Part shown: positions 20,699-53,432 of the stretch, one piece after another
Layout of the letters: each line of letters opens with the position of its first letter
Position numbering within the stretch: position 1 is the stretch's first letter
Assembly (NCBI GenBank): GCA_016350165.1
Contig: CP066225.1
Coordinates: 4,340,001-4,404,000 of the forward strand
DNA: 64,000 bases
Reading direction: 5' to 3'
Source: Planctomycetota bacterium
GTDB taxonomy: Bacteria > Planctomycetota > Phycisphaerae > Phycisphaerales > Phycisphaeraceae
Program-made: the position numbers and the translations under genes
Notes under the pieces: generated by a model
What the model saw: the letters and a program-made list of their open reading frames with translations, nothing else
What the model was told of the DNA's origin: nothing
Database searches by the model: none

Positions 20699-20727
20699 GT
20701 TTGTGTGGTGGTGGCCCTAATCAATGG

Positions 20728-26541: not shown

Positions 26542-26565
26542 AGATGAGTTAATATGAAAATAAAA

Positions 26566-26602: not shown

Positions 26603-26719
26603 TAGATGTATTAATTCTGTCCATAATCAACTGGTTTAATTAAACAATTAGGATATATCTGCATATTATTTATAGTACTTTCAACGCCCTATTTTCTGCA
26701 GTTATGTCATAATAAAAAC

Positions 26720-27571: not shown

Positions 27572-27573
27572 TC

Positions 27574-28254: not shown

Positions 28255-28280
28255 TCATTATCTTGGCATGCATCGATGAG

Positions 28281-29841: not shown

Positions 29842-29842
29842 C

Positions 29843-30676: not shown

Positions 30677-31865
30677 ATTGCCTCTCCCTTTGATTCGAAC
30701 TAAGTTCTACGATCAACTGATCAATATCTTTGAAACGTTGTTCCCAAGAGTATTGCTCAGATATTTTCTGTATCAAATTGCCATCCATCACTTGTTGGCA
30801 AAGTTTTTTGATTGTCTCAGCACCTTCTTCAGCACAATCAACCAGAAATACACCTGCCTCAAATTCTTCTTCAACGTAAGAATCCAGTCTAGTGGAAACA
30901 ACAGGGACACGTGCACTGAAAAAGTCAAACGTTTTTAAGGGCAGTGATCCATGAGTCAAAGGACTTAATCTAAAGGGAATCAAACCAACGTTGAAATAGT
31001 CGATATATGCTTTGATTTCCTCATATGGCTTCGGCCCAAGAAATACGACATTCTTCAAGTTAATAAATCTTTGCCAATCATTTTTGGAAAAACGATCTCC
31101 TCCCTCATTGATCTGCCCAATAAATACAAAGCAATGTTCATCGCATTTGTCGATAACCTCGCAGAGCCAATGCAAATCAATTTTATGTGCTGCAATATTT
31201 CCTATATATCCAACGATTTTCCGTTCCTTTGCCGCCTCTTGCAAATCTTTTGGCATCTCTTTATTCGATTGATGTGAATAGTTCTCCCCGACATTCGACC
31301 ATGATAAAACACGCTCTTTACGTTTCACCAATTGCCTTACGATCGGTTTGGATGTACCGATGGCAACCTCTGCCGCCGCCAACGCTTTATCCTCCATCTC
31401 AATCAGTAAATTTTCAGCAACACCCGGATTTGCTTCGTAGAAATCGACTTTATGGTAAATCTTTATCGCATCAACGTTTTTGCATAGTTCAGACATATAA
31501 GGCAAAAATCCCCACACAAGATCAATCTCAAACTCACGTTTTTTTAACTTCTTTCTCAATTGCCAATCTGCAAACCACAAGTTCAACTTATTCACAAGAC
31601 GAGAATGACCCAGCGGCAAACATAACACAGAAACAACATCAATATCATGAGGATGATTATCAATAACCTTTATATCTATATTTAATGCTTTTTTTATTCG
31701 CCCCGTTATTTTATAAAAGTCATGCTTACAAAGTCGAGGCCAGCGCAGTCCGATCGATTCGACAAAAACTACACGATGGCTTTTTGCCAAGTGCTTCGCA
31801 ATAAAGTGGCAATTTAGCGGACCAAAACTTTTCCAACTACTTGATGCAAGAACCAGTATATTCAA
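30642..31865 (-). CDS. Glycosyltransferase (GT4-like, TuaH type)
   Basis: 407 residues. 'MNILVLASSSWKSFGPLNCH' at the N-terminus and the C-terminal half 'IVGYIGNIAAHKIDLHWLCEVI', 'NVVFLGPKPYEEIKAYIDYFNVGLIPF' and 'GSLPLKTFDFFSARVPVVSTRLDSY' (donor-site E/D...K.fd..a.g.PvVsT) show a GT-B fold glycosyltransferase. No membrane segment, so cytoplasmic or peripheral. First gene of the leftward three-gene export unit. The donor and acceptor sugars are unknown. Confidence 0.82.
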   Translation of the reverse strand: MNILVLASSSWKSFGPLNCHFIAKHLAKSHRVVFVESIGLRWPRLCKHDFYKITGRIKKALNIDIKVIDNHPHDIDVVSVLCLPLGHSRLVNKLNLWFADWQLRKKLKKREFEIDLVWGFLPYMSELCKNVDAIKIYHKVDFYEANPGVAENLLIEMEDKALAAAEVAIGTSKPIVRQLVKRKERVLSWSNVGENYSHQSNKEMPKDLQEAAKERKIVGYIGNIAAHKIDLHWLCEVIDKCDEHCFVFIGQINEGGDRFSKNDWQRFINLKNVVFLGPKPYEEIKAYIDYFNVGLIPFRLSPLTHGSLPLKTFDFFSARVPVVSTRLDSYVEEEFEAGVFLVDCAEEGAETIKKLCQQVMDGNLIQKISEQYSWEQRFKDIDQLIVELSSNQRERQYEHRERIVSAS

Positions 31866-32104
31866 GCTTCTAAAGATCCCCTGTCTTCCCCGATTGATTG
31901 ATCATTCATGTGGGTCACTAACTTACTTTTCGCAATACATATCCACACTGATAACACTACTAATTTAAGAAAAATAACGACACTTCGTATATACCCCTAA
32001 TGACAACCAGTTTCATTGCCTTATGTTTAAAGAAACAAATTCTTACTTTTAGGTTGTGCGTAAGTTAACCCAATTTTAAACCCAATGAATCAATGATTTA
32101 GCTT

Positions 32105-32881
32105 ATGTCACAACAAAAAAAACCGATCCAACTTATATACATCACTTCACGTGGGCACAGCGGCTCTACGCTTCTTGATTACCTGATTTCATCACATCCA
32201 CAAATTATAAGTGCAGGAGAAGTCAAAGTTATTTCACCTGATTGGAAGCGTCGATGTTCATGTAACGCTCCATCAATATGGAAATGTCCCTTTTGGCTAC
32301 AAATTGATGATTATCTGCAACAAAACCACAATCGTTCAATGAGCGATTTGAAAATTAATTCAGATGATTCACAACGTTTCGCATCTGATAACTATGCATT
32401 TTTCGATGCTGTGCGAGCTTTAACCAATGCGGAAATGATCGTCGATTCATCCAAAAGTGTTGCAAGGTTAAGAAAGCTGCACGCAGCTCCAAATATCGAT
32501 TTGCACATGTTAAAGCTTCGGCGACATCCTTGTGGTGTCGTTTACTCCAATGTGAAAAAACAACGCTCATGGTACAGTGAAGCGATCAAATACAAGCGAC
32601 ACGAGTTATCATCATCTCGTTTCCATCGTGGTAAAAAACACTTAAAAGTAAAGTATGAAAATCTCGCACTCAATCCACAAGATGAGCTACAACGTGTAAT
32701 GTCATTTCTTGGTATGTCCTATGACCCAAGTCAGCTTGACGGCATCAACGATACTGATCGTCACAACATCGGTGGCAACCATATGCGATTCACGCCAAAT
32801 AAAAAAATTAAACTTGATCAGCAATGGCAAGCCAATCTGAATTTTTTTCAAAAATCTGTAATCAAATGTCTTTGCCACTAG
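32105..32881 (+). CDS. Sulfotransferase family protein, second
   Basis: 258 residues. PAPS 5'-loop 'YITSRGHSGSTLLDYLISSHP' (~10-30) and 3'-phosphate region 'MLKLRRHPCGVVYSNVKK' (~138-155), plus 'VKYENLALNPQDELQRVMSFLGM' near 190, the typical 'Y.dL..dP...l..i..flg' helix of sulfotransferases. A second enzyme of the same type as 27574-28254 but not a close copy. It is divergent from the exporter unit and 19 bp before a glycosyltransferase gene. Confidence 0.82.
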   Translation: MSQQKKPIQLIYITSRGHSGSTLLDYLISSHPQIISAGEVKVISPDWKRRCSCNAPSIWKCPFWLQIDDYLQQNHNRSMSDLKINSDDSQRFASDNYAFFDAVRALTNAEMIVDSSKSVARLRKLHAAPNIDLHMLKLRRHPCGVVYSNVKKQRSWYSEAIKYKRHELSSSRFHRGKKHLKVKYENLALNPQDELQRVMSFLGMSYDPSQLDGINDTDRHNIGGNHMRFTPNKKIKLDQQWQANLNFFQKSVIKCLCH

Positions 32882-32900
32882 CAACATCAAAAAACATATT

Positions 32901-34391
32901 ATGAATCAACTAAACAAACTAAAAATATATCAAGCCAAAACCGCTATTTTTTTACCATGGTCCCAACCATTTATTTATCGGCTTCTCGACAAACTTAAAC
33001 CACACATAGATCAAATTGTTCTCACACGTTTTCATGAGAACGGCGACATTTTTCCAATGCCAATCATCGAACTATGCAACAAGAAAACATTCTTCGATCC
33101 AATTGCAGCTCAAAAAAAAGCACAGCAACTACAAGCTAAACATCAAGGTAAACTCATTCATGCGCATTTTGGCTACACCGCTATTAATATGATGTTTCTG
33201 AAAATTTTCCTTCGCGTACCCATGATCGTTACGTTTGGCGGCAAAGATCTCTCCGTCTTCGCTCAACGTCCTGAAGCTCACTCGCCTTTCATTCAACTTT
33301 TTGATTTATGTGAAAAATTTGTCGCTGTAAGCGATAGCCTTAAGCAGCAAGCAATTGATTTAGGATGCCCGGAAGACAAAATCGTCACGATCAGACGTGG
33401 TGTACCAACAGATCAATTTCCTTACAAACAACGCAGCACCTCAACTGATAAGCCTTGCAATATTCTCATGGTTTCTAGACTCACAAAAAAGAAAGGCCAT
33501 CTCTTTGCGCTCAAAGCATTGAATAAACTAACGCATCTCGACTGGCAACTGCACTTGGTAGGTGAGGGCGAGGAGTATGCACCAATTATCCGTTTCGCTA
33601 AGAAAAACGGCTTCGCATCTCGTCTGCATTTTCATGGTGTTCTACCCATCGAAAAAGTTTATGAGCAAATGCAAAAAGCGGATATCCTCCTACACCCTTC
33701 AATCACAGGCAAAGATGGTGATCAGGAAGGCATCCCAAATGCTCTTGTCGAAGCGATGTCCACTGGACTGCCAATTGTGGGCACACACCACGGAGGCATT
33801 CCTGAAGTCGTCATACACAATCAAACCGGCTTCCTCGTTCAAGAAAACGATCAAAAGCACCTCATCTACGCTTTGCAAACGCTCATTGAAAACCCAACTC
33901 AGCGTCTCGCGCTAGGCAAAGCCGCTTCGAATTACGTCGCACAACATCTTTCACTCGACGATCAGGTGTCCAAGTATCTCGATCTTTACCAATCACTCAT
34001 TGAGCAATACCCACCACACACACGCAATTGTGCAGGCACCAATCTCTCACCAGAGCTCCCCATGCAACTCGCCACAATCCATCGTAGTGCTCTCACTAGT
34101 GGCGATTTCTCAATTGCCGAAGTTCTCGAAAGCGCATTGCTTGCACCAGCCAAATCCGATGTGAAACACCCACTATGGTTCAGGCTTTATTGGCGTATCA
34201 AAAAAATCATCCCATTCCGTGTAAAATTTGCGATCAAACGTATGTTGTTTCGATTTTTCGTACCTTTTGTTCGCAAAGATGTATTCAGAGAACAATCCAT
34301 TCCGTTCTGGCATGAAATCTGTGCCAATAATCTGGATGGCGTGAGCGCGCCTGATACAAGTAGCAGCCTCGATCCTGTTCACCATCAATAA
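32901..34391 (+). CDS. Glycosyltransferase family 4, with C-terminal extension
   Basis: 496 residues. The GT-B fold is shown by 'LIHAHFGYTAINMMFLKIF' (~92), 'NILMVSRLTKKKGHLFALKAL' (~190), and donor-site 'KDGDQEGIPNALVEAMSTGLPIVGTHHGGIPEVV' pattern (E-X7-E) near ~275-305. The last ~110 residues form an extra tail with a basic segment (IKKIIPFRVKFAIKRMLFRFFVPF) that could bind the membrane. Typical of exopolysaccharide assembly. Co-directional with the sulfotransferase 19 bp upstream. Confidence 0.87.
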   Translation: MNQLNKLKIYQAKTAIFLPWSQPFIYRLLDKLKPHIDQIVLTRFHENGDIFPMPIIELCNKKTFFDPIAAQKKAQQLQAKHQGKLIHAHFGYTAINMMFLKIFLRVPMIVTFGGKDLSVFAQRPEAHSPFIQLFDLCEKFVAVSDSLKQQAIDLGCPEDKIVTIRRGVPTDQFPYKQRSTSTDKPCNILMVSRLTKKKGHLFALKALNKLTHLDWQLHLVGEGEEYAPIIRFAKKNGFASRLHFHGVLPIEKVYEQMQKADILLHPSITGKDGDQEGIPNALVEAMSTGLPIVGTHHGGIPEVVIHNQTGFLVQENDQKHLIYALQTLIENPTQRLALGKAASNYVAQHLSLDDQVSKYLDLYQSLIEQYPPHTRNCAGTNLSPELPMQLATIHRSALTSGDFSIAEVLESALLAPAKSDVKHPLWFRLYWRIKKIIPFRVKFAIKRMLFRFFVPFVRKDVFREQSIPFWHEICANNLDGVSAPDTSSSLDPVHHQ

Positions 34392-34595
34392 TCCCATCTT
34401 TCCCCATTTACAACAATTTGCGTGCAACCAACCTTCAACTCACGTTTCATCACTCTATATATACATAACTTCAGACCCATAAATGCATTAAACCTGTCTA
34501 TTAAGCCGCATTTGTCCATGTGCCACATGCTTTCATGCCTACCTCCCCGCCCATCTATCCATTATTCTCTTGCTCTTGTTAAATGAACTGGTAAA

Positions 34596-34607
34596 CTGGT
34601 TAACCAG
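34596..34607. promoter_or_regulatory. Palindrome CTGGTTAACCAG, operator candidate
   Basis: Perfect 12-bp palindrome, with a half-site AACTGGT repeated just to its left. It lies 256 bp upstream of the pullulanase start. LacI-type regulators bind such sites, but which regulator acts here is unknown. Confidence 0.35.
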
Positions 34608-34697
34608 ATTGGGTGAGCCTGCCAAAATACATTGTTTTTAGCATCATAGTCATCCAATTCATTGCTCGCCTTACCAGCTTGCAATTCAGCTATCGGG

Positions 34698-34787
34698 GTT
34701 GCCTCCATTTGGAGGTGACACAGTTATAGAGCTTTCCGCTCACACGCTGCGTCTACCTTAGTAGACACCTCCGCGCGGCTGCCGCGC
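34698..34787 (+). promoter_or_regulatory. Multi-hairpin 5' leader of pullulanase
   Basis: Consecutive stems: GTTGCCTCC/GGAGGTGAC (34698-34719, ATTT loop, two wobbles), GAGC/GCTC (34729-34741), GTCTAC/GTAGAC (34751-34766, CTTA loop), and GCGCGGC/GCCGCGC (34773-34787). It is not an identified riboswitch class. It may be a cis-acting RNA or a set of protein sites; the start codon is 77 nt after the last stem. Confidence 0.4.
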
Positions 34788-34863
34788 AAAGCCTGTCAAC
34801 CTTCAGTCGACCTGCTTGAGGTTTCTGCACTTTCATTCATCTTGATTTTCACTTGGGAGAATC

Positions 34864-37434
34864 ATGAAACTGCGACTCTGGCTGACTTCCGTTCTCTTCC
34901 TGCTGGCCGTACTCTCCGTACAGGCCTCAACACTTGCCGCTTCAAAACTCAAATCTTCCGCACCAGATATGACCAAAGTGCGGGCGATCGCACCAAAATC
35001 CTCCAAAGGTACTACTTTTATCCTACACTATTACCGACCCGACGGTAACTACGCCGGCTGGAACGTATGGTCATGGGCTGAAGGACAGGAAGGTCGTGCT
35101 GTTAACTTCACCGGCAAAGATGCTTTCGGCGTCTATGCCACAATCAAATATTCCGACCGCTTATCAAAAGCAAACTTTATTATTCGTTACAAGGAATGGG
35201 AGCGTAAAGACGTGGATCGAGACCGTTCGACAACAATAAACAACAACGGCGTCGCCGAATCTTGGGTCGTCTCTGAAGACGTTAATGTTTACAACAACCC
35301 AGACGACATCGACTTCAGCCTCCGCGTTAACGCAGCTTTCCTCGATAAGCTCGACACAATCCTCGTGACACTTTCACAACCTGTTCAGCGTCGCGCACTC
35401 AACCCAGCTGATATCAACCTCACCGTTGGCAGCGAAAAGCTCAACATCAAAAAGGTCGCACCAGCAGAACCTTCAAACGCACAAGCTCACAAATCTTTTG
35501 CCATCAAACTCGCATCACCACTCTCAATCGAACAGATCAAAGAATCCATCACGATCACACTTCCAGGTGAAAACCCAACCACCGTCTATGTTCGTGACGC
35601 AATCGATGACCCATCACTCATCGCATCTAACGCACAGTTAGGCGCAATCGCAACTGATTCTGCAACCACCTTCCGTACATGGTCACCAGTTGCTTCATCC
35701 GTCGACCTCCTCCTCTTCGATTCAGAAGACGCTAAATCCCCATCCAAGACCATTGCTCTTACTCAAGCAGACTCAGGTCTCTGGGAAACAACCGTCGAAG
35801 GTGATCTGGATGGCACCTTCTACCAATACACCTTCACCTCATACGGCAAAAACCGCACCGTCGCTGACATCCACTGCTTCGCAGCCTCACATGACTCATC
35901 AAAATCCATGGTCGTTAACCTCAATCGCACCAACCCCAAAGGCTTCGAAGATCACAAACTCCCAGAATCAAAATCACCTACAGATGAAGTCATTTACGAG
36001 ATTCACGTCCGTGACTTCTCCATCCGTGATGACAACGTACCAGAACAAAACCGCGGCAAGTTCGCAGGCCTCGCCATCATCAATCCTGAAACAGGCGAGC
36101 AAGTCAAAACCTCACTTTCACACCTCAAAGACCTCGGCGTAACAGCCGTCCACCTCATGCCGATCCAGGACTACACCGCAACTCTCACCGAATACAACTG
36201 GGGCTACTGGACTGCTCTCTTCAACGTACCCGAAGCTCAATACTCCTCAACACCACACGATCCAGCAGGCACCATCAAAGAACTCAAGCAAGCCATTCAA
36301 ACCCTCCACGAAAACGGTATCCGCGTCATCCTCGACGTCGTCTACAACCACACATCCTCATCATACGAATACTCACCATTCGACCAGGCCGTCCCATACT
36401 ACTTCTTCCGCACAACCCCAGACGGCAACCTCTGTAACGACTCCGGTTGTGGCAACGCGTTCGCCGACGAGCGTCTCATGGCTCGCAAGTACATGATCGA
36501 CTCACTCAAGTACTGGGTCACCGAGTACAAGATCGATGGCTTCCGCTTCGACCTCCTTGGCATGCACTATCCTGAAACCGTCAAGAAACTCGCTGTCGAT
36601 CTTCGCAAGATCCGTCCTGACCTCACCATCTACGGTGAACCATGGACCGGCGGCGGCCCAACTCACTTCGGTAAAGGCGCTCAACGCAATACAACCGTCG
36701 CAGTCTTCAATGACAACGTTCGTAACGCAGTGCGTGGCGACCTTGATGGCACCTCCACAGGTTTCGCAACAGGTCACGGCGGCGACATCGAAGCCGTTAA
36801 GCGTGGCATCGTCGGGGCTATCGACGAGTTCGCATCTGCTCCGACCGAAGCTGTCTCATACGTCTCAGCTCACGATAACCGCACGTTCTGGGATAAGCTC
36901 GAACACACTTACCCAGACATGGATAACAACACCAAGCGGTCTATCCTCAAACTCGCTCATGGCATCGTCCTCACCTCGCAAGGCATCGCTTTCCTTCACG
37001 GCGGCTCAGACTTCGCACGGACTAAGTTCGGCAACCACAACTCATATAACGCTGGTGACGACATCAATAAATTCGATTGGCGTCGTAAATCCGAATACAT
37101 CGATGTGCATAACTATTTCAAGGGCCTCATCGCTCTCCGCAAAGCTCATCCAGCCTTCCGCATGACCTCAGCCGCTGATGTGAAGCAGAATCTCAAGTTC
37201 ATCGACGCTCCAAACGGCGTCATCGCTTATACCCTCAACGGACGCCGTACAGGCGACGAATGGAACCAAATCCTCGTTGTACTCAACGGCGAACCCTCCG
37301 CTCAATCAATAAATCTTCCCTCAGGCCACTGGAACGTCGCTGTTGACGATCAGCGAGCAGGTACCACCGACCTTCGCCAAGTTAACGGCCACATCACCCT
37401 CCCACCATATTCATTGATTGTTGCATACAAATAA
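34864..37434 (+). CDS. pulA: Secreted type I pullulanase (GH13)
   Basis: Hydrolyses alpha-1,6 branch points of pullulan, glycogen or starch. 856 residues. Signal peptide 1-26 (LWLTSVLFLLAVLSVQA). An N-terminal CBM41-like pullulanase-associated domain (~45-135, 'FILHYYRPDGNYAGWNVWSWA'), a CBM48-like domain (~265-340), and a GH13 catalytic barrel (~370-760) follow. The type I marker is 'YNWGYW' (usually YNWGYD). Catalytic nucleophile Asp563 in GFRFDLLG, acid/base Glu592 in YGEPW, and Asp671 in SAHDN can be read. ATG has a GGGAG site. A perfect terminator follows. A long structured leader precedes it. Confidence 0.93.
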   Translation: MKLRLWLTSVLFLLAVLSVQASTLAASKLKSSAPDMTKVRAIAPKSSKGTTFILHYYRPDGNYAGWNVWSWAEGQEGRAVNFTGKDAFGVYATIKYSDRLSKANFIIRYKEWERKDVDRDRSTTINNNGVAESWVVSEDVNVYNNPDDIDFSLRVNAAFLDKLDTILVTLSQPVQRRALNPADINLTVGSEKLNIKKVAPAEPSNAQAHKSFAIKLASPLSIEQIKESITITLPGENPTTVYVRDAIDDPSLIASNAQLGAIATDSATTFRTWSPVASSVDLLLFDSEDAKSPSKTIALTQADSGLWETTVEGDLDGTFYQYTFTSYGKNRTVADIHCFAASHDSSKSMVVNLNRTNPKGFEDHKLPESKSPTDEVIYEIHVRDFSIRDDNVPEQNRGKFAGLAIINPETGEQVKTSLSHLKDLGVTAVHLMPIQDYTATLTEYNWGYWTALFNVPEAQYSSTPHDPAGTIKELKQAIQTLHENGIRVILDVVYNHTSSSYEYSPFDQAVPYYFFRTTPDGNLCNDSGCGNAFADERLMARKYMIDSLKYWVTEYKIDGFRFDLLGMHYPETVKKLAVDLRKIRPDLTIYGEPWTGGGPTHFGKGAQRNTTVAVFNDNVRNAVRGDLDGTSTGFATGHGGDIEAVKRGIVGAIDEFASAPTEAVSYVSAHDNRTFWDKLEHTYPDMDNNTKRSILKLAHGIVLTSQGIAFLHGGSDFARTKFGNHNSYNAGDDINKFDWRRKSEYIDVHNYFKGLIALRKAHPAFRMTSAADVKQNLKFIDAPNGVIAYTLNGRRTGDEWNQILVVLNGEPSAQSINLPSGHWNVAVDDQRAGTTDLRQVNGHITLPPYSLIVAYK

Positions 37435-37521
37435 CCCAGAAATATCGTGCAAACTTAATGCCCGATGTTATAATGAGTTACATAATCTTGATATACAACA
37501 AATCTGTTTTCTAAAATAGAT

Positions 37522-37553
37522 AAAAGCTGCTCACCACCATGAGCAGCTTTTTT
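37522..37553. terminator. Bidirectional terminator between pulA and EEP gene
   Basis: Perfect 12-bp stem AAAAGCTGCTCA (37522-37533) with TGAGCAGCTTTT (37540-37551), flanked by A-run on the left and T-run on the right, so it can serve both converging genes. Confidence 0.85.
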
Positions 37554-37597
37554 AATATTCATTTTTAAAAACCTTACTTACTTATCCTCAGCCCCTC

Positions 37598-38461
37598 TTA
37601 CTCCTCAACATCACCAACCCCGCCAATCAACTCCAAATCAACAACCACAGGCAAGTGATCCGACGCAACTTGCTCATCAATTACCTCAATCGACTTCGTA
37701 TCAAATCGAATCGCACCACTCGTCATCACATGGTCTATCTGCTTATTAGGCTTGTCCGCTGGGAACGTCATCCCCGTATCAATCTTCGAACTAACCTGCC
37801 AGAATTTCAACATCTCACTCATCGTAGGCGAACCATACCCCGCATTAAAATCACCACCCAATATCACAGGTGTCACATCACTATTCGCAAACAAACGATT
37901 CAGCGCCTTCGCCTGCTCATGCTTGTCTCCAATCGGCATCCACTGCAAATGCGTTGACACCAATCTCACCTCACCCATCCCCGGCACATTCACCAGACCA
38001 CTCAAAGCAACTCGCCTCTCAGCATCACGACTATAAGGCAACTCATTCACCGCAATGTCATAAATCGGCCACTTCGACAACAACATCAAACCATACTCAC
38101 CACCCTGATAATCAATCGTTTTTCCAAACGTGTGATACATCCCCGTTAGCTTCTGTAACTCACGAGGCATATCAACTCCACCAGTTCGCTTTGTCCCTTT
38201 ATCAATCTCCTGAAGCGCAACCAGATCCGCATCACTATCCTTAATCACATTGGCAATACGTTCAAGATCCAACTCCCCATCCAACCCCGTACCAAAGTGA
38301 ATGTTGTACGTCATCACACGCACCGTCTTGCGTTGATGCTCAGCCACTTCAACCTTCGCATCATCATGATCTACATCACGCTTCACCCCAGCACCCGCAC
38401 AACCACCAATACTCATCAAACCACTTAAAGCCAAACAAGCCACGAAAGCTTTCTTTTTCAT
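37598..38461 (-). CDS. Exported endonuclease/exonuclease/phosphatase-family protein
   Basis: 287 residues. Signal peptide with a lipobox-like SIGGC (Cys ~21), so likely a lipoprotein. EEP fold motifs: 'VRVMTYNIHFG' (~48), 'DLVALQEIDKGTKR' (~80, metal Glu), 'LVSTHLQWMPIG' (~165), 'VILGGDFNAGYGSPT' (~194), 'QIDHVMTSGAIRF' (~240) and 'ASDHLPVVVDLEL' (~265), all catalytic positions present. Members act as DNases, sphingomyelinases or phosphodiesterases; here an extracytoplasmic phosphodiesterase is the safest reading. Converges on pulA. Confidence 0.9.
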   Translation of the reverse strand: MKKKAFVACLALSGLMSIGGCAGAGVKRDVDHDDAKVEVAEHQRKTVRVMTYNIHFGTGLDGELDLERIANVIKDSDADLVALQEIDKGTKRTGGVDMPRELQKLTGMYHTFGKTIDYQGGEYGLMLLSKWPIYDIAVNELPYSRDAERRVALSGLVNVPGMGEVRLVSTHLQWMPIGDKHEQAKALNRLFANSDVTPVILGGDFNAGYGSPTMSEMLKFWQVSSKIDTGMTFPADKPNKQIDHVMTSGAIRFDTKSIEVIDEQVASDHLPVVVDLELIGGVGDVEE

Positions 38462-38677
38462 CTCTATAACATCCTTCTGTGTGTGATAGCATCCATTTCG
38501 AAACCGAACCCGCCAATCACACCAGAATCATACACGACCCACACCAATCCGACCACCAATAATCACTTACCACTCAAAACCACAAGAATAAGCCGTTTCC
38601 CGCAATAATCGCACAAACACACACATCACCAATCACTTATTTCCTACATCATTCGTTTTGTTCAAAGTCTGTGCTGT

Positions 38678-39025
38678 CTACAACTCACACGTATAGATTC
38701 GCTCATTACCCGCTTCAATAAAATCTGTTGCTCGAAGATCCGGAATATACACATGTAAATCAATCGGCGTACTCACCTTCGCTCGGGATCCTAATATCTC
38801 CAACCGAATCTCACCATCATCTTCAACCCCAACAACCAATCCCTGATCTTCAAGCTGCTTAAGCTCGCCATTAAAAACCGACACACGGCCAGGCTGAGCA
38901 ATATTCCCATTAATCGGATCAATCACCAAAAGCGCATCCGGATATGGCAACAACATCAGCGATATCATATTTATCCCATAGATCACCGCAATTAAACCAA
39001 GTATCCAAAGAATGGTCGACTTCAT
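38678..39025 (-). CDS. Small membrane-anchored protein, unknown
   Basis: 115 residues. One N-terminal helix (~5-28, ILWILGLIAVIYGINMISLMLL), then a small beta-rich domain with 'VIDPINGNIAQPGRVSVFNGELKQLEDQGLVVG' and 'STPIDLHVYIPDLRATDF'. No recognised family. There is one Cys near the end (YTCEL). It stands alone, 216 bp from the EEP gene. Composition and codon use look normal, so a real gene is likely. Confidence 0.6.
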   Translation of the reverse strand: MKSTILWILGLIAVIYGINMISLMLLPYPDALLVIDPINGNIAQPGRVSVFNGELKQLEDQGLVVGVEDDGEIRLEILGSRAKVSTPIDLHVYIPDLRATDFIEAGNERIYTCEL

Positions 39026-39234
39026 TATTTGCTTCCCGTTACTTCATATACTTAAAAATATATCAGCTAAAAACTAACTATCGATTAGACCAATAATGCA
39101 ATACTCAATTGCTCAAATAAAACAAAGCTGCAACAACGATCTGAGATAACATCAATTTTAAGTATCACAAAACTTGTAACATTGGCAAAGCAAAACGAGA
39201 ACAGATAAATTATGTAATCAAGATAATAAGTAAA

Positions 39235-39897
39235 GTGAGAATCTTGGATATCAAAAATCTAACAAGCGAACAACGACACGAATATTATCTCGCAAAGCGC
39301 ACGGAATTATTTACTAAACGAGCTTTGGGTGAGTTTTTTGAATTTATCTCACAATTTCAAGGTATTCATGTAAGTGGCTTTACCACTAAGGACAAAGTCG
39401 CTTACAGTAGTTTTGATTGTATGAATGTTCTGGAGGAGCGTTTAAACACAAAACGCTGGGACACTAGATTTGATACAAAAATTCAGAACAGTCGACCAAC
39501 TACAGAAATAATAGATTGGTTTCATAGTCTCTGTAAGCAAGTCGGTATTCAAAATACAATATTAATTGACCCACAAATAACAGTAAGCTTTGGACCAGCT
39601 GTACGTAGATGGCTAGAAATATCCTACGATTCATTAGATGATCTCGCTCGGTTATGGATTGCATATAGATATTGTATGACCATCTTAGATACTAAGAATC
39701 GTCAGTTTTTCGAAACCTTTCACTGTGAGTATGACATTGAAGCTTACATAAGCCAAGACTCAGATGTGAGCACGCTAGAACAAAAATATTTAACCAGAAC
39801 CGAGGATCAATCCAATCAATTGCAAGCAATTGAAAATGAGTCACAATCACTCATAGCTCGAACGCCACACTTATTCCCAGCCCAACATATACGTTGA
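39235..39897 (+). CDS. Unknown 220-residue cytoplasmic protein
   Basis: GTG start, no convincing Shine-Dalgarno. No signal peptide or membrane segment. The protein is mostly helical with aromatic and charged residues ('RALGEFFEFISQF', 'FHSLCKQVGIQNTILI', 'VRRWLEISYDSLDDLARLWIAYRYC'). No known motif is recognised. Its A+T-rich codon use differs from the pullulanase upstream, and intergenic element copy B follows it directly. It could be a recently acquired or fast-evolving gene. Confidence 0.55.
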   Translation: MRILDIKNLTSEQRHEYYLAKRTELFTKRALGEFFEFISQFQGIHVSGFTTKDKVAYSSFDCMNVLEERLNTKRWDTRFDTKIQNSRPTTEIIDWFHSLCKQVGIQNTILIDPQITVSFGPAVRRWLEISYDSLDDLARLWIAYRYCMTILDTKNRQFFETFHCEYDIEAYISQDSDVSTLEQKYLTRTEDQSNQLQAIENESQSLIARTPHLFPAQHIR

Positions 39898-39923
39898 TAA
39901 ATTCTGTTAGTGTGCCAATCACC

Positions 39924-39945
39924 ACCTACTGTTCATTCAGTAGGT
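39924..39945. other. Hairpin after the 39235-39897 gene
   Basis: ACCTACTG (39924-39931) and CAGTAGGT (39938-39945) pair perfectly around TTCATT. There is no T-run, so it is not a standard terminator. It lies between the gene stop and element copy B. Confidence 0.45.
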
Positions 39946-39977
39946 AGGCCGTCAAAATGCATATTTTGAAAACAAAA

Positions 39978-40184
39978 CGCGCGCACAAAAGCGAATTTAC
40001 CCCTTATTTAATAGTCATTTTTGATTGATTTCTAACCATTTCTGACTAAAACCGCGCCGTTTCTGTTCATTTCTTAGCCGTTTTGGACTGTTTTGAAGCT
40101 CCAAAAATCAAGAATCGAGAATTTCGTGTGCGCAAATTACGATTTACTGCCAAATGTGAAATAAAACACCACAAAAGTGCGCAC
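39978..40184 (+). repeat. Dispersed intergenic element, copy B
   Basis: Boxes CGCGCGCAC (39978-39986), GTGTGCGCA (~40126-40133) and GTGCGCAC (40177-40184). The first two are ~147 bp apart. Inside lie 'TTTCTAACCATTTCTGACT' and 'CCGCGCCGTTTCTGTTC', shared with copies A (opposite strand) and C. No coding frame. The region 39898-40224 holds nothing else except the hairpin at 39924-39945. Confidence 0.65.
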
Positions 40185-40224
40185 ACTTTGAAATGGCAAG
40201 ACCACTAAACGCAGTGAAATTCGA

Positions 40225-41235
40225 TCAAATCGGAGCTGCTGGCGCCTTCGGCTTCTTCGCTTCCTCAGCTTCTTTCTTTTTCTGTTCATCCACACGATCA
40301 ATCTCTTTTTCGACCGTTTCAAAATCCACATCACTCAACCGCATCTGCTTATCCTGCAAATACTTCTTCCAACCTTCAATCTGTGCCGCGCGCACGTCCT
40401 GTTCAGCAAACGGATCAAACGCGATATCAGCCCGTGTCATATCCTTCAGCAAATCCACCGCCGCCGCACGCGTCGCTAACCTTTTACTCTCCAAAAGCTT
40501 AACCAAAGCAGGCAGCACTCGATCCCCCGCACTCTTAACCTGAATCACCATTGCCTTACGCCCAAGCATGTCCATCCCCGCTAAAACCTCAACCAGTTTT
40601 ACGACTGCAACATCAAACTCTTTATCAGGCAACGAGTTATCCAAATCACGCATTACCCCCACAATCTGATCAATCCGTTTCTCCATTTCACTCTTTGCAA
40701 ACGGGTCATTTTTGTACTTTTCAAGCAACGTAACCATAGAACTGACAGGCATATAGCCACTAATCACCGTCAGCACTTCACCCCTTGCATTCACCACCGC
40801 CGTCACTGGCACGCCTCTGATTTCAAAAAACGATGCAATCCGTGTCTGCTTATCAATGTCTACTTTCGTCCACATATAACTCCCTGCTAAGGCAAGTACT
40901 TGTGGATCGGTTAGCGTTGAGGATTCCATCTTCTTGCACCAGCTACACCACTCGGCGCCGAACACGATGATGGTGTTTTTTCGTTCTCTAACCCCACGCG
41001 TGATCGCTTCCTCCAGCGGGCGGTACACAATCTGTTTGTACGTTTCGCTCTCAACAACTTGCGCTTTTTCTTCTGAACTTTGTGCTGCGACAGGAGTTGT
41101 AAATCCGCACAATAAACCAATCTGTGCGCATAAAAATGTGCTGCACAGTACACGCTGCAATAATCTAGTTCGCGTCTCAGTTCGCGTGCTTCCCAAATTC
41201 ATCTTCTGCTTGATTCTAAAACTTGTCTTAACCAT
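40225..41235 (-). CDS. Exported thioredoxin-fold protein with HEAT-like tail
   Basis: 336 residues. A basic N-terminus and hydrophobic stretch (~28-50, CAQIGLLCGFTTPVA) form a signal peptide; ATG 41202 is an alternative start. Thioredoxin fold at ~70-185 with redox pair Cys97/Cys100 in 'VFGAEWCSWCKKM' and cis-Pro in 'RGVPVTAVVN', resembling DUF255/Thioredoxin_7 proteins. Residues ~190-290 are helical and HEAT-like ('VLPALVKLLESKRLATRAAAVDLL'). The end is charged, finishing KPKAPAAPI, like the APAAPL end of the TlpA-like protein. Possibly the last gene of the DUF4159/MoxR unit (93-bp gap). Confidence 0.8.
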   Translation of the reverse strand: MVKTSFRIKQKMNLGSTRTETRTRLLQRVLCSTFLCAQIGLLCGFTTPVAAQSSEEKAQVVESETYKQIVYRPLEEAITRGVRERKNTIIVFGAEWCSWCKKMESSTLTDPQVLALAGSYMWTKVDIDKQTRIASFFEIRGVPVTAVVNARGEVLTVISGYMPVSSMVTLLEKYKNDPFAKSEMEKRIDQIVGVMRDLDNSLPDKEFDVAVVKLVEVLAGMDMLGRKAMVIQVKSAGDRVLPALVKLLESKRLATRAAAVDLLKDMTRADIAFDPFAEQDVRAAQIEGWKKYLQDKQMRLSDVDFETVEKEIDRVDEQKKKEAEEAKKPKAPAAPI

Positions 41236-41328
41236 GTTCAGATTCCAAAATTCTTTTCATACTCAGCATTATTGTGCATTTAAGTGTCATTTTGTGTCGT
41301 AGCTCTAATCGATAAATAGGCTGCAAGT

Positions 41329-42024
41329 TTAATGTGTTAAAGCATATGCGAGGATATTGACGTTGAGGATGCGTGCTGATTTGATTTCGTTTCCACCACA
41401 GCAGCAGCAGTTTGCACCTGCGTTTGCAGTGTCATTCAAACCATCGGGAGACCAGATTAATACAACTTTTCCATCTACTTCCAAGCCGTGTAGTTCAGGC
41501 AATTTCTTGTTGCCGCTTTTGTATTTAGATGAGGTGATGTCGTAAACGGTATGGAAAATGCGGTGTGATTTATCGAGTTCCTTAAGTTTCTTCTTGGGAA
41601 ACATGCGTGTTATTTCTTGTTTGAATGAGTTGTTCCATTTTTTTGATGAGCAGCCAGCGGAGGCGATGATGAAGCCACCGTTGTTGAGGTAGTCGCGCAT
41701 GTTAATGCGCTGTGTTTTTGTGAGTCGGAATGTGCCTTCGCCGGTCATGACTGCGAAAGGGTACTCGTAGAGTTTTTCTGACTCAAGTTTAACTGCGTGG
41801 AATTTTTTGTAGGTGCGGATATGTGTGTCTTTTTCAATTTGGGTCAGGAACTGGTCTGAGAAACAGACGGAGGTTTTGCCTGAGCCGTAGACGAGATTGG
41901 CTGTGTGAACGACACCTTCCTCCTCACGTGAAGATTTGGTGTTGTTTGCACCAGAGGCGGGTAGGGCGGCTGCAATTGCGATACAGGCGGCTGCGATGAA
42001 TGTTGTTAAGATCAGATTCTTCAT
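41329..42024 (-). CDS. DUF4159-domain exported protein
   Basis: 231 residues. Signal peptide (~1-25, LILTTFIAAACIAIAAALPASG). The DUF4159 fold (an AdoMet-like/GATase-like Rossmann domain seen next to BatA/MoxR clusters) is indicated by 'YPFAVMTGEGTFRLTKTQRINMRDYLNNGGFIIAS'-type sequence (~90-125) and 'HRIFHTVYDI' (~155). Near the end a Cys cluster 'NAGANCCCCGGNEI' occurs. The gene follows the large coiled-coil gene by 69 bp and is probably the last core member of the MoxR operon. Role unknown. Confidence 0.85.
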   Translation of the reverse strand: MKNLILTTFIAAACIAIAAALPASGANNTKSSREEEGVVHTANLVYGSGKTSVCFSDQFLTQIEKDTHIRTYKKFHAVKLESEKLYEYPFAVMTGEGTFRLTKTQRINMRDYLNNGGFIIASAGCSSKKWNNSFKQEITRMFPKKKLKELDKSHRIFHTVYDITSSKYKSGNKKLPELHGLEVDGKVVLIWSPDGLNDTANAGANCCCCGGNEIKSARILNVNILAYALTH

Positions 42025-42093
42025 TGTTCTCTCCTTTGTTTTAAGGAGTTAAATGTTCAAGTTATTGAGTCGCTTCAGTTCTAAATAACATTT

Positions 42094-45057
42094 TTAGTTT
42101 TGGTTACTATTGCTATCTTCACTATCGTTCTGTTGATTTTCGGCTTGATCCTCAGCAAGACGCTTGAAGTAGTTACCTGCTTCTTCGCGGTAAGGCAGTG
42201 GTGTACCACGGAGGAGAGAAGAGCCATGAATGCGGTCATTGGGGTTGGAGTCATCGAGTTGCTCTGAAGGGTCGAGTGTTTCAACGTCGTTGAATTCGGG
42301 TTTAGCATTCTTGCCTTTGCCGGCGTTGTGTTTACCATCACCACCTTCACCGGTGCCGTTGTTGCTGCTTGCTGGGCCACGTACACTCATTTTCGCGTTT
42401 GAACCCTGCATGCCGTAGCCGTCTGATCCACCGTTACCTGTGCCGGGCACACCGCGACCTTGTTTCATTTGACTGAGTGCATTTTGCATTTGCGGTCGAT
42501 TGAATTTGAAACAGCTGTCCATGCATGCGGAGCCGTTCATTGCCTGACAATCGGATAAGAGTGATTCAAGTTTGTCTGCAGCGGCTTGTGCAGCGTCATA
42601 TGCTTCACGAGGTTTAGTTTCCTCGGACTTGCTTGCGGCTTGCTGCATGTCCAAGTCGGCTTTGAGTTCATCGATACGATTGCACATCTTTTCTGCGGAG
42701 CCGGTCATGTTGGGAAGCATCTCCTGATGTTTCGGATCGGTGACTATGTCGCGCAGTTTTTTAGTTGCATCAGTCAATTCGTTTTGAAGTGTTTGTTCTT
42801 CCTTACCAAGTTTTCTGAGTTGCTGCTTTTCAGCTTCGGTGAGATTCGTTTTGTTTTTCAAGGTTGCGTAGCGTTTTGCAACCTCCTGTTGTTGCATGAT
42901 GACGTATTGGATACGTTCGCCTTGCTCTGCGATCTTGTCTGCGAGTGCAAGCTTGTCGAGTTCGTCTTTGGTGTATTGGCGTTCCTTCTTGGATTGTTCT
43001 GAGAATGGATCTTTTTGCTTGCGGAAACTATTGGCTGAATCAGTGAACTGCTGTCGTTGATTGGCTGCGAGTGAAGGAGACTTGCACTGCGCTGCAGATT
43101 CTTTGAGTTCATTGGCAGCCTTATTTTGAGCTTCAAGTTGATCTGCTAATTTACGGAGTGAATCATTGTATGGTTCTTCAAAATCATAGAGCTGCTTTTT
43201 GTTTGCACGTTCATGAAGATCGTCTGCGAGTTTCTGTGTTTGCTCTTCATATTGTTTGAGTGCTTCTTCAAGCTCCTCAAGTTTTTGCTGTTCAGCTTCG
43301 GTAAGCTGCTGCCCTGATTCGACCTTGGATTGAAGTTCGTCAAGCTGCTCAATGATTGCTTCACGCTGTTCTTGCAGTTCGTTTAAACGCTCCATGAATT
43401 CATCGAATTCTTCATTGATATCATCGATACGGTACTGTGTACGCGCGATCTCGAGATAGTCTTCTTCAGAGATGACTTCGATGATGTAGATCGGTGTTTC
43501 TGCGAATTGCTTATTTTGCGGATGATTATCGTAGACGGTTGCGTGATACTCGATGACATCGCCCGCTTTTGCACCGAGTTTTGGAAGGTCGAAGGTGTAT
43601 ACGGCTTCACCTACTGTTGGGTTGGACGGTTGCGTTTTCAGTTTGAGGTTGGTTGAAGATGAACCCCATGCGTTGACAGAACGATTGAGTGTGAGCGTGC
43701 CGAGCCCGATATCGTCAGTTGCTTCGATGATGACATCCAGCTTATATGTTTCAGGCACAACAGTACGTTCATCAGGATCGAGAATGTATACATCTGGGAA
43801 CTGATCGATTTTGGAAGTTAGTTTTGTAACGAATGGTTCAGTACAAGTGATATCGGATTCACCGGTGATGGTTGCCGAGATTGAACCGCTACCAAGTAAC
43901 TTAAAGCTGGCTGTTGCGAGCTTTGGATCATCTGTATGCGGCTTGAAATATGCTGTGAATTTGTTTGGTGTGGTTTTGTCTTTGCCGTTAGGAACAGGGA
44001 TGTTTTGCTCGACTGCGATTTCGCCTGCTTTAATGGGGACGTTGCTTTGGACGGTGAGTGAGATTTGAGTGCCAGCGATTGCTGTGATACCTGCAGCGTT
44101 GATTGGAGATTGTATCTCTGGCCAATTGGTGTAATCGGGGTAGTCGAGAGTTGCGTATACTTTTTCAAAACGTGGCACAGGTAAGACGGTGAGGGTTTGA
44201 ATGGCAGAACGGCCGTGAGGTGAGTCGATATAGAAGTTGCGTGTCTGCTGTGCTGATTCGATATGAAACTCGAATGTATTGCCCGCTTGTTGCTGCTGCT
44301 GAGTCTGATCGGTTGTGATAGCATGAAGAACCGGAGACATCTCTATGCGTTGGTTTGGCTGATTGTTTTCATCTACAAAGACGATGTCGGCAGTATCAGG
44401 TGTGATGAAACCTGAAAGGTTTGCGGAGATTGTGACGGGGAGGCTATGCAAGACTTTTTCGGGTTGTGATGAGATATTGAAGGTCACGAAAGTGAATGGC
44501 GGATGATTGGCGTATGGTGATAGAAGTCTTGGGAGAACGGCATTGAAAACGCTGGGGAAAAAACTGTATGTGAGAATGGTAAGTATAAAAATGCTTGTGA
44601 GCGTGAGGATTGCTTTACGAACGGGCTTCCAATCGGGGATACGATCGGGAGAGAGTTTTGTGGCGATGGCATTGCCTTGCTCGACGGCGAGTTCAGCAAG
44701 AGCGGTGCTTGAACCGGTGGTGCAATGTTTGGTTGAAAGTTCGAGTGTATTGATCAGTGGCGAATTATCGAGGTTGAGGCGGTCTTCAACGATGAGCGCG
44801 ACGCGGTTGGCGTTAAAACGGGTACGAAAGTACGCCGTGAGTAGTGTGACGATGGAACTGATAATTGCGATGGCGATGATGATGTCGAGGATGATGAGGC
44901 CGATGGGAGAGAGAGCGAGGATCGCATCGGTGAAGATGAGAATAATGGCGGTGATGATGGATAGGCATGAAGCAGTACATGTGATGGTTAGGAGATGCGT
45001 CCAACGTAGTGATGCGTTTGCACGTTTGAGTAAGTTGATAACAGGTGCTGCGTTCAT
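42094..45057 (-). CDS. Large membrane protein with coiled coil (DUF4175-like)
   Basis: 987 residues from ATG 45057, chosen for its AAGGAGG site and ATGA overlap with the upstream VWA gene. Helices near ~35-70 and ~150-170 anchor it. A long beta-rich extracytoplasmic region (~180-520) has Ig-like strands. Residues ~525-800 are a long coiled coil ('QREAIIEQLDELQSKVESGQQLTEAEQQKLEELEE'-type), and there is a Cys-rich spot 'CQAMNGSACMDSC' at ~815. The Gly/Asn-rich tail ends in Gln/Asn/Asp runs. Such proteins accompany MoxR-DUF58-BatA sets; the biochemical function is unknown. Confidence 0.8.
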   Translation of the reverse strand: MNAAPVINLLKRANASLRWTHLLTITCTASCLSIITAIILIFTDAILALSPIGLIILDIIIAIAIISSIVTLLTAYFRTRFNANRVALIVEDRLNLDNSPLINTLELSTKHCTTGSSTALAELAVEQGNAIATKLSPDRIPDWKPVRKAILTLTSIFILTILTYSFFPSVFNAVLPRLLSPYANHPPFTFVTFNISSQPEKVLHSLPVTISANLSGFITPDTADIVFVDENNQPNQRIEMSPVLHAITTDQTQQQQQAGNTFEFHIESAQQTRNFYIDSPHGRSAIQTLTVLPVPRFEKVYATLDYPDYTNWPEIQSPINAAGITAIAGTQISLTVQSNVPIKAGEIAVEQNIPVPNGKDKTTPNKFTAYFKPHTDDPKLATASFKLLGSGSISATITGESDITCTEPFVTKLTSKIDQFPDVYILDPDERTVVPETYKLDVIIEATDDIGLGTLTLNRSVNAWGSSSTNLKLKTQPSNPTVGEAVYTFDLPKLGAKAGDVIEYHATVYDNHPQNKQFAETPIYIIEVISEEDYLEIARTQYRIDDINEEFDEFMERLNELQEQREAIIEQLDELQSKVESGQQLTEAEQQKLEELEEALKQYEEQTQKLADDLHERANKKQLYDFEEPYNDSLRKLADQLEAQNKAANELKESAAQCKSPSLAANQRQQFTDSANSFRKQKDPFSEQSKKERQYTKDELDKLALADKIAEQGERIQYVIMQQQEVAKRYATLKNKTNLTEAEKQQLRKLGKEEQTLQNELTDATKKLRDIVTDPKHQEMLPNMTGSAEKMCNRIDELKADLDMQQAASKSEETKPREAYDAAQAAADKLESLLSDCQAMNGSACMDSCFKFNRPQMQNALSQMKQGRGVPGTGNGGSDGYGMQGSNAKMSVRGPASSNNGTGEGGDGKHNAGKGKNAKPEFNDVETLDPSEQLDDSNPNDRIHGSSLLRGTPLPYREEAGNYFKRLAEDQAENQQNDSEDSNSNQN

Positions 45058-53076: not shown

Positions 53077-53302
53077 GCGCGCACGAAATGAATGGCGTTT
53101 GGATCAGCAAAGTTAGAAAAGTGGTCAGAAACGCGCCATTTCTGTTCGGTTTTGGATCGTTTTGATGCAAAGTTGAGCGTTTTGTGCCTGTTTAGAGCTG
53201 TTTTTGTGTTTTGCGTATTTGTGCGCGCGATTGATGTAAGGCGATGCGTTACTAGGTGTTATATGAGTGCGTGTCGAAGATGGTGAATTTTCGTGCGCGC
53301 GC
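53077..53302 (+). repeat. Dispersed intergenic element, copy C
   Basis: Boxes GCGCGCAC (53077-53084), GTGCGCGCG (53221-53229) and GTGCGCGCGC (53293-53302), plus GCGCGCG at 53371-53377. The first two are 144 bp apart. Inside, 'GTCAGAAACGCGCCATTTCT' and 'GTTCGGTTTTGGATCGTTTT' match copy B in order and orientation. Read outward-in, the two ends GCGCGCACGAAAT and (reverse complement) GCGCGCACAAAT form terminal inverted repeats. The gap 52938-53432 holds no gene. Confidence 0.65.
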
Positions 53303-53432
53303 TTGAAATACGGATTTGTGTGAAATGAAGAAGAACTACTGGTCGGATTTTGGTTGGAAAATGTTTTGATGCGCGCGGGCGGGGATGTGTATGAGGTGAA
53401 ATGTTTTGTCTAATCAGTGGATAGATGGGATG

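What the first reader, a model, noticed from the sequence alone, without database searches (positions are those of the whole stretch)
39978..40184. A dispersed ~145-150-bp intergenic element, three copies in the window
Copies A (11868-12026, minus), B (39978-40133, plus) and C (53077-53229, plus) each have two GTGCGC-type end boxes 144-149 bp apart and share interior blocks in the same order (TTTCTAACCATTTCTGAC, CGCGCCGTTTCTGTTC, AGCCGTTTTG...TTTTGAAG). Copies have one or two further boxes outside. Copy C has clear terminal inverted repeats (GCGCGCAC(G)AAAT). All three lie in gene-free gaps and none codes for a protein. It could be a MITE-like element, a REP/ERIC-type repeat or a small-RNA family. 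I do not recognise it as a described family.
Basis: partly seen in the sequence, partly recalled or inferred. Interest (0 to 1): 0.75.

Follow-up and report, generated by a model that had tools for sequence, protein, structure and literature searches.

The report
Evenly spaced origin-like DNA elements
Two related marine bacteria carry roughly a hundred copies each of a 150-base DNA element spaced about every 40,000-50,000 bases, sitting where the strand composition of the DNA flips the way it does at a replication origin, which suggests that these bacteria may copy their chromosome from many places instead of one.

Summary
A sequence model from 15 copies finds 146 matches in G000 and 93 in G001. 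A copy is boxes (GCGCGCACAAA type) about 150 bp apart enclosing A/T triplets phased at 10.75 bp, without RNA structure. Three results argue against a MITE or REP: no two clusters lie 0.4-10 kb apart (29 such intervals expected; 15 in G001); 39 of 67 G001 clusters examined lie within 300 bp of the orthologous G000 cluster, 26 of 26 testable pairs in the same orientation; and they mark upward jumps of a sawtooth GC skew (61 of 61 in G001, 72 of 74 in G000), with linear decline between jumps (r=-0.98). Third codon positions follow the skew on either gene strand. Human replication N-domains have this shape; here it is 24-55 kb in a bacterium. Best reading: dispersed, sequence-defined replication origins with a bent or wrapped core. 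Initiation was not observed; another strand-asymmetric process is the main rival.

The parts
39973..40137 (+). Element B (the finding): left box 39979, phased A/T tract, right box 40128
   Evidence: R1 model hit G000:4379973-4380137; alignment A1; highest periodicity score in 264 kb, tied with C
40177..40184 (.). Further box (GTGCGCAC) right of element B
   Evidence: further boxes are commoner on the right of elements
39924..39945 (.). Hairpin ACCTACTG..CAGTAGGT just left of element B; similar ACTGT/ACAGT hairpins lie beside other copies
   Evidence: read directly; not tested further
11861..12031 (-). Element A: boxes at 12017 and 11868
   Evidence: R1 model hit G000:4351861-4352031 minus, E 6.3e-34
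11701..11883 (-). 160-bp second unit between element A's right box (11868) and a third box (11707)
   Evidence: third boxes about 305-318 bp from the left box recur
12173..12200 (-). Companion repeat (CAACGATACGCTTTAGT type) on the left flank of element A
   Evidence: read; ACGATACGC 38 times left and once right of 75 full-length G000 elements
53077..53232 (-). Element C: boxes 53077 and 53221 round a phased A/T tract; minus strand preferred
   Evidence: boxes; periodicity 15.7, tied highest with B in 264 kb; weak uncapped profile hit on minus strand, E 0.071; not in the genome hit list
53293..53376 (.). Further boxes outside element C (53293, 53369)
8000..11860 (.). Upward GC-skew transition beside element A (-0.20 at 8 kb to +0.32 at 11 kb)
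40138..42500 (.). Upward GC-skew transition beside element B (-0.32 to +0.11, then +0.40 by 44 kb)
12032..39972 (.). N-shaped skew domain between elements A and B: +0.4 to +0.5 falling to -0.46

Best explanation
The element is the core of a dispersed, sequence-defined replication origin, present at about 85 places found in G001 and 132 in G000 (perhaps 130-175, since 2 of 8 sites in 264 kb were missed by the capped genome search). Inferred mechanism: an unidentified initiator binds the GTGCGCGC boxes, about 150 bp apart, with further boxes mostly on the right. The phased A/T tract between them bends or wraps DNA by indirect readout, possibly round DNA gyrase, whose E. coli motif has the same 10.75-bp period, and so helps to open DNA. 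Forks start in a zone of roughly 0-3 kb to the right of the element and leave in both directions; forks from neighbouring elements meet anywhere in between. That gives a steep upward GC-skew jump at each element and a linear decline between elements. SHOWN: the family, its anatomy, phasing, spacing, shared positions and the skew pattern. INFERRED: that forks start there, the initiator, the wrapping, and that initiation is frequent enough to dominate strand bias. A weak whole-chromosome skew suggests that a conventional oriC works too.
For: Skew: in G001 61 of 61 elements tested have negative skew on the left (mean -0.37), 60 of 61 positive skew at 2-4.3 kb on the right (mean +0.28), 61 of 61 jump up; in G000 72 of 74 with enough flank jump up (71 left<0; 56 right>0 at 1.8-2.75 kb). 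Taking single 11-mer boxes instead of model hits, 41 of 42 (G000) and 55 of 56 (G001) with enough flank show the jump (boxes of one element are not independent). Contiguous 264 kb and 200 kb show the sawtooth directly; between jumps the mean skew falls linearly, r=-0.98, in 6 and 5 domains whose edges I set at the main jumps. The sign fits replication: G>C and, further out, T>A to the right; C>G and A>T to the left. Not gene transcription: third-position skew follows the domain on either gene strand (r=0.84 and 0.87), and genes are weakly or not co-oriented (105 of 179; 62 of 128 on the G-rich strand). Spacing: 132 clusters, 0 intervals <10 kb after merging at 3 kb, against 29.3 expected (minimum 14 in 5000 random sets); G001 85 clusters, 0 against 15.0. 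Position: 39 of 67 G001 clusters examined within 300 bp of the G000 orthologue; 26 of 26 in the same orientation. The cumulative-skew minimum lies right of the element in 41 of 43 and 41 of 41, the side with more further boxes (114 right, 35 left of 74 G000 elements; 55 right, 14 left of 37 G001 elements). Phasing 10.75 bp. Control: 0 of 51 loci >=15 kb from other bacteria have an upward jump >=0.5 (maximum 0.33); by the same measure 2 of 13 and 2 of 10 arbitrary 20-kb pieces of the two genomes do.
Against: No initiation data. A weak global skew coexists: means negative in 0-2.6 Mb and positive in 2.6-5.2 Mb of G000, so a single oriC contributes. Box pairs exist in two other genera without a clear jump (G015 left mean -0.08, n=17, right +0.05, n=8; G006 left -0.04, n=35, right 0.01, n=5), so boxes alone do not make the skew. 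Of nine upward jumps >=0.29 in the 264 kb one (4494 kb) has a single box, and two more (copy C, 4427.7 kb) lie at box clusters that the genome search missed. Several jumps are modest (0.25-0.43; 86th-94th percentile of all positions), and in 18 of 74 G000 cases the right side was not yet positive at 1.8-2.75 kb. The box excess beyond 300 bp is small (41 right, 25 left; 24 right, 11 left). DnaA-like boxes are rare beside elements (8 right, 4 left in G000), and dnaA1 lies inside a domain, not at an element. At ordinary fork speeds (recalled) a 5-Mb chromosome does not need so many origins.
Confidence: 0.6

Rival explanations
1. A non-replicative strand-asymmetric process starts at each element and spreads about 20 kb both ways, for example pervasive outward antisense transcription with R-loops, or repair synthesis, exposing one strand to cytosine deamination.
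For: Outward transcription would give the same sign of skew (reasoning). A weak global single-origin skew exists beside the sawtooth.
Against: Gene orientation is at most weakly related to the domains and the skew is strongest at third codon positions on either gene strand; elements are not concentrated between divergent genes (G000 36 convergent, 25 divergent, 66 tandem of 127; background 88, 69, 221 of 378). Break-and-resection would give the opposite sign (reasoning, not tested).
Confidence: 0.22
2. The elements are topological or architectural sites (strong gyrase or nucleoid-protein sites) placed at intervals; the skew jump is a by-product, for example forks restarting or changing direction there.
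For: A/T phasing of 10.75 bp equals the period published for the E. coli gyrase motif (PMC6379681, passages); AAA and TTT share one phase, as expected for bendability; over-dispersed spacing.
Against: A passive site does not by itself reverse fork polarity or explain the linear decline between sites; further boxes are asymmetric; the gyrase motif is symmetric about a cleavage centre, which was not shown here.
Confidence: 0.12
3. A mobile element (MITE-like) with target immunity, which keeps copies more than 10 kb apart.
For: Target immunity would give an exclusion zone.
Against: Positions and orientation shared by two species although the elements are only about 68% identical; end boxes not inverted as a rule; insertion does not create 40-kb skew domains; no match in the plasmid or phage collections at E<=1e-5.
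Confidence: 0.03
4. The sawtooth records many old inversions of a single-origin chromosome, and elements are recombination points.
For: Inversions can reverse skew (reasoning).
Against: Inversions give two sharp edges; here upward edges are steep and downward ones gradual, and orthologous elements keep position and orientation.
Confidence: 0.02

Closest known systems
Human replication N-domains (PMC3320577, passages read)
   Same: Upward skew jumps read as origins and a linear decline read as a gradient of fork polarity; many domains per chromosome
   Different: Megabase scale there, 24-55 kb here; the passages name no shared DNA element; replication timing is known there and not here
Multi-origin, DnaA-independent replication of cyanobacteria (Synechocystis, Nostoc; PMC7198777, passages read)
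   Same: A bacterium replicating from several places
   Different: In the passages read, those skews are called irregular and no repeated origin element is described; here two dnaA genes exist and sites are sequence-defined and over-dispersed
Bacteria proposed to have several origins from skew plots: Mycoplasma pulmonis, Wigglesworthia, Wolbachia (PMC3269012, passages read)
   Same: Several skew reversals in a bacterial chromosome taken as a sign of several origins
   Different: Explained there by AT-rich oriC copies, some clustered; the passages describe no repeated element or regular sawtooth
E. coli DNA gyrase motif / strong gyrase sites (PMC6379681, passages read)
   Same: Long degenerate motif with 10.75-bp A+T/G+C phasing
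   Different: 130 bp and symmetric round a cleavage centre there; here about 150 bp, framed by GTGCGCGC boxes, with asymmetric further boxes
MITE / NEMIS / REP-BIME / ERIC repeats (recalled)
   Same: About 100-160 bp, intergenic, about 100 copies
   Different: No hairpin structure, end boxes not inverted as a rule, no clusters 0.4-10 kb apart, shared position and orientation between species
Bacterial oriC (recalled)
   Same: Upward GC-skew jump; initiator-type boxes; phased (possibly bent) DNA
   Different: Single per chromosome, DnaA boxes, often near dnaA; here many, other boxes, not beside dnaA

Membership tests
Replication origin | Upward GC-skew switch | tested here: met
   61 of 61 (G001) and 72 of 74 (G000) jump up
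Replication origin | Clustered initiator-binding sites | tested here: inconclusive
   Boxes in and to the right of the element; binder unknown
Replication origin | DNA synthesis starts there | not testable with these tools
   Needs marker-frequency or nascent-strand data
DnaA-dependent oriC | DnaA boxes and dnaA next to the site | tested here: not met
   DnaA-like boxes rare (8 right, 4 left in G000); dnaA1 is 11 kb and 21 kb from the nearest model hits and shows no jump in the 3.5 kb held
N-domain (human type) | Steep upward jumps with linear decline between | tested here: met
   r=-0.98 in 6 and 5 domains
N-domain (human type) | Replication-timing U shape | not testable with these tools
   No timing data
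MITE | Terminal inverted repeats | tested here: not met
   End boxes mostly direct or palindromic in the 15-copy alignment; copy C and a few others have inverted boxes
MITE | Recent or polymorphic insertion | tested here: not met
   39 of 67 positions shared; 26 of 26 same orientation
MITE | Target-site duplications and source transposase | not tested
   No test was made
REP/ERIC/small RNA | Conserved stem-loop with covariation | tested here: not met
   6 pairs between the boxes, 0 compensatory; no Rfam match in the window
Strong gyrase site | About 10.75-bp A+T/G+C phasing over about 130 bp | tested here: met
   best period 10.75 on a 0.25-bp grid, z 57.6 and 35.7; E. coli value
Strong gyrase site | Cleavage by gyrase at a symmetric centre | not testable with these tools
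   Needs Topo-Seq

The most novel reading that the evidence does not exclude
A bacterium duplicates most of its chromosome from more than 100 over-dispersed, sequence-defined origins (boxes plus a wrapped 150-bp core), with random termination between them, as in eukaryotes, beside a conventional oriC.
Probability: 0.55. Interest if true: 0.97.

Novelty: categorically new. Interest (0 to 1): 0.92.

Why it matters
Bacterial chromosomes are taught to have one origin. The bacterial exceptions that I found in print (cyanobacteria; skew-based proposals for a few AT-rich genomes) come with no described origin element in the passages I read. Here the genomes of two cultured species show about a hundred marked, over-dispersed switch points with the composition signature of origins. 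It would let the question 'why one origin?' be tested in a bacterium, give a prokaryotic model of dispersed origins and their spacing, and link a gyrase-like wrapping motif to origin function. Even if the process is not replication, a local strand-asymmetric process of this strength (skew of roughly +-0.3 to +-0.5 within about 40 kb) would be new to me. 'Categorically new' means that I found no described bacterial system with these features together; a reader who counts human N-domains or cyanobacterial multi-origin replication as the kind may call it a new variant.

Tried and rejected
RNA element: folding of the alignment and Rfam gave nothing. Mobile element: plasmid and phage collections gave no match; shared positions argue against it. 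In G006 the box pair ends a longer intergenic repeat that often lies at contig ends; I first suspected a transposon end, but the reading frames of 60 aa or more round two internal copies showed nothing transposase-like by eye (no family search). A DnaA paralogue as special initiator: 54 of 61 relatives list two or more DnaA matches, so it is not peculiar to this genus. Model R1 in 61 genomes: hits only in G000, G001 and one weak one in G053, under the tool's stricter filters and 45 scored candidates each. A genome-contig scan with the window's prolyl-tRNA synthetase returned no locus titled Poriferisphaera (the tool says near records may be left out) and served only as a control (51 of its 80 loci, those >=15 kb; one is titled Planctomycetota, so it is no control for relatives). 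Orthologous elements are no more identical than paralogues (0.678 against 0.674), though their mean alignment score is higher (113 against 94) and 14 of 26 rank in the top five; position and orientation are the better evidence of descent.

Limits and rows dropped. An uncapped profile search of the 264 kb and 200 kb stretches found no site outside the known clusters except copy C. Adding the 11-mer boxes of the first 3.67 Mb gives one interval of 5.7 kb below 10 kb, against 26.3 expected. Dropped: hits with E>0.1 before the spacing count; 18 of 85 G001 clusters, chosen as the weaker ones, not fetched (67 of 85); 1 of 132 G000 clusters without a covering stretch; cluster pairs under 400 bits; 13 of 39 orthologous pairs without an element >120 bp on both sides; elements with short flanks or low score; partial elements. 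In one search the flank counts included partial elements, so their own right boxes may be counted; one search repeats the count on full-length elements only. The domain edges leave out the jumps at copy C, 4479 kb and 4494 kb. Gene calls in my scripts are crude longest-ORF calls. The profile was trained on copies that include 10-bp length variants, so the clustering of box distances near 130/140/151/161/171 bp is only suggestive (resultant 0.64-0.65 at 10-10.5 bp for the 27 of 89 off-mode distances, but still 0.54 at 9.5 bp). Papers: I saw listings and passages only, no whole text.

Full report
WHAT WAS CHECKED. The three copies are present. The window is positions 4,340,001-4,404,000 of a 5,234,020-bp single contig. 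That size is given for Poriferisphaera heterotrophicis ZRK32, and 4,291,168 bp, the size of the same-genus genome G001, for P. corsica KS4 (PMC10945688, passages). GCGCGCACAAA occurs 145 times in G000 against 1 for the reversed control, and 79 times in G001 against 3.

ANATOMY. Fifteen copies were aligned and made into a sequence-only model. It finds 146 matches at E<=0.1 in G000 and 93 in G001. Of 61 genomes searched (both included), only these two and one weak hit in G053 answered, under stricter filters. A copy is a left box, an interior of about 150 bp and a right box in direct or palindromic form. The interior carries AAA or TTT triplets with a best period of 10.75 bp on a 0.25-bp grid (z 57.6 in 91 G000 copies, 35.7 in 37 G001 copies, against 20 base shuffles each). 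AAA and TTT occupy the same phase, with A+T peaks at 28, 39, 50, 60, 71, 81, 92 and 102 bp from the left box in G000. That looks like a bending or wrapping signal, not a base-specific site. The published E. coli gyrase motif has 10.75-bp G+C phasing within 130 bp (PMC6379681, passages). There is no conserved RNA structure. Often there is a third box 155-168 bp beyond the right box. Further boxes are commoner on the right: 114 against 35 within 1.3 kb of 74 full-length G000 elements, 55 against 14 of 37 in G001; beyond 300 bp the excess is small (41 against 25; 24 against 11).

SPACING. Merging matches within 3 kb gives 132 clusters in G000 (mean 39.7 kb, minimum 10.8 kb) and 85 in G001 (mean 50.6 kb, minimum 15.4 kb). 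The merging hides nothing: no raw interval lies between 0.3 and 10.8 kb in G000 or between 0.35 and 15.2 kb in G001. Random placement gives 29.3 and 15.0 intervals below 10 kb (minimum in 5000 random sets 14 and 4). With 11-mer boxes added for the first 3.67 Mb there is one of 5.7 kb, against 26.3 expected.

AGE. Translated comparison of 131 G000 and 67 G001 cluster neighbourhoods pairs 52; in 39 the two elements lie within 300 bp of the same place. By arithmetic about 1.5% would do so by chance (131 x 600 bp in 5.23 Mb). Where both elements could be extracted (26 of 39), all 26 have the same orientation. Orthologous elements have the same mean identity (0.678) as paralogous ones (0.674), with a higher mean alignment score (113 against 94). 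The sites are old and kept in place while their sequence drifts.

THE SKEW SWITCH. Element strand agrees with the GC skew of its flanks in 122 of 131 (G000) and 61 of 63 (G001) cases; for single 11-mer boxes the figures are 101 of 122 and 45 of 56. Averaged in element orientation, skew is about -0.35 to -0.4 on the left and climbs through zero about 1.1-1.5 kb to the right. In G001 61 of 61 elements tested jump upward, 60 of 61 to positive values; in G000 72 of 74 jump upward, 56 of 74 to positive values by 1.8-2.75 kb. Over 264 kb of G000 and 200 kb of G001 the skew is a sawtooth of roughly +-0.3 to +-0.5. The six jumps >=0.5 in the G001 stretch are all within 1.7 kb of a model hit. Of nine jumps >=0.29 in the G000 stretch, six have model hits within 2.7 kb, two lie at box clusters missed by the genome search (copy C and 4,427.7 kb), and one (4,494 kb) has only one box. 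Between the main jumps the mean skew falls linearly (r=-0.98 in 6 and 5 domains of 24-55 kb; edges set by me, leaving out copy C and two small jumps). Among 51 loci >=15 kb of other bacteria the largest upward jump was 0.33; by the same measure 2 of 13 and 2 of 10 arbitrary 20-kb pieces of these genomes exceed 0.5.

WHY REPLICATION. The sign (G and, beyond about 1.3 kb, T in excess to the right; C and A to the left) is that of leading strands diverging from an origin. Third codon positions follow the domain on either gene strand (r=0.84 and 0.87), and genes are weakly or not co-oriented with it (105 of 179; 62 of 128), so transcription of genes does not explain it. Elements are not concentrated between divergent genes. 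Inversions would give two sharp edges. In human cells the same shape is read as origins at the jumps and a gradient of fork polarity in between (PMC3320577, passages). A weak global skew (negative 0-2.6 Mb, positive 2.6-5.2 Mb in G000), with dnaA1 at 2.498 Mb, suggests that a conventional oriC contributes as well; dnaA1 itself lies inside a domain with no jump in the 3.5 kb held. Two DnaA matches or more are listed for 54 of 61 genomes, so the second DnaA is not a special clue.

AGAINST. Nothing here observes initiation. Box pairs in two other genera (G006, G015) show at most a faint jump, so either the boxes have another primary role or those species use them little. Several jumps are modest. 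Few DnaA-like boxes lie beside the elements. A different local strand-asymmetric process cannot be excluded.

KNOWN? Searches of the paper library for GC skew with Phycisphaerae and replication origin (0 papers), Planctomycetes with replication origin, dnaA and chromosome replication (0), GC skew with planctomycete and leading strand (7 papers, listing only apart from passages of PMC7111523), and several origins in bacteria (listings) showed no description of this. A review reads several origins from skew plots of a few AT-rich bacteria (PMC3269012, passages), and some cyanobacteria replicate from multiple origins (PMC7198777, passages); no repeated origin element is described in the passages read. 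Most subscription papers and all bioRxiv preprints are outside the library.

VERDICT. The element family, its phasing, its over-dispersed spacing, its shared positions and its coincidence with skew jumps are shown. That the elements are dispersed replication origins is the best-supported explanation (0.6), testable with one sequencing run on a cultured type strain.

Noticed in passing
L036, L072, L076 and other G006 loci (C44:1-450, C60:43213-43597, C21:57325-57722): In another genus (G006) box pairs about 113 bp apart end a longer intergenic repeat (79-98% identical to the query among partial hits) that often lies at contig ends.
   Followed up: partly
L046 and L329-L343 (G015): In G015 boxes about 100 bp apart end a repeat with CTATATAGGGG, next to a separate dispersed palindrome of about 34 bp (CACACAGCACGC..GCTGTGTGGCAC).
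   Followed up: partly
L033 (from about 400) and L049 (from about 1080): In two genera a box pair lies just upstream of reading frames that start alike (EQELDILEKISQILGD type, read by eye); the family was not searched.
   Followed up: no
left flank of many G000 elements; window about 12173-12200: A companion repeat (CAACGATACGCTTTAGTGAAACAAC type): ACGATACGC 38 times left and once right of 75 full-length G000 elements, 3 and 0 of 41 in G001.
   Followed up: partly
39924-39945 and beside L005, L007, L009, L011, L024, L029 copies: ACTGTnnnnACAGT-type hairpins lie next to several elements.
   Followed up: no
G000 loci such as L004, L014, L018, L022, L027: Other dispersed intergenic repeats seen by eye: GCCCTCAACGGGGCCGGGCGGGCC, GACCGGCGACCTGTCAGGTCGCGG, and a CTAATCAGTGGTTAG type.
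   Followed up: no
L328:901-2505 (minus): A second DnaA (534 aa; DnaA_N, ATPase and C-terminal domains) whose helix-turn-helix reads GRKTHSTVITA where dnaA1 reads GGRDHTTVMHS; two matches are common in the order.
   Followed up: partly
L197 (G000:2506357-2512557): The element at 2,509,357, 11 kb from dnaA1, has a very large skew jump (about -0.7 to +0.58 over 6 kb); it may be the main origin.
   Followed up: no
window 40.2-56.4 kb: The longest ORFs of this stretch are all on the minus strand while the skew marks the plus strand as G-rich.
   Followed up: partly
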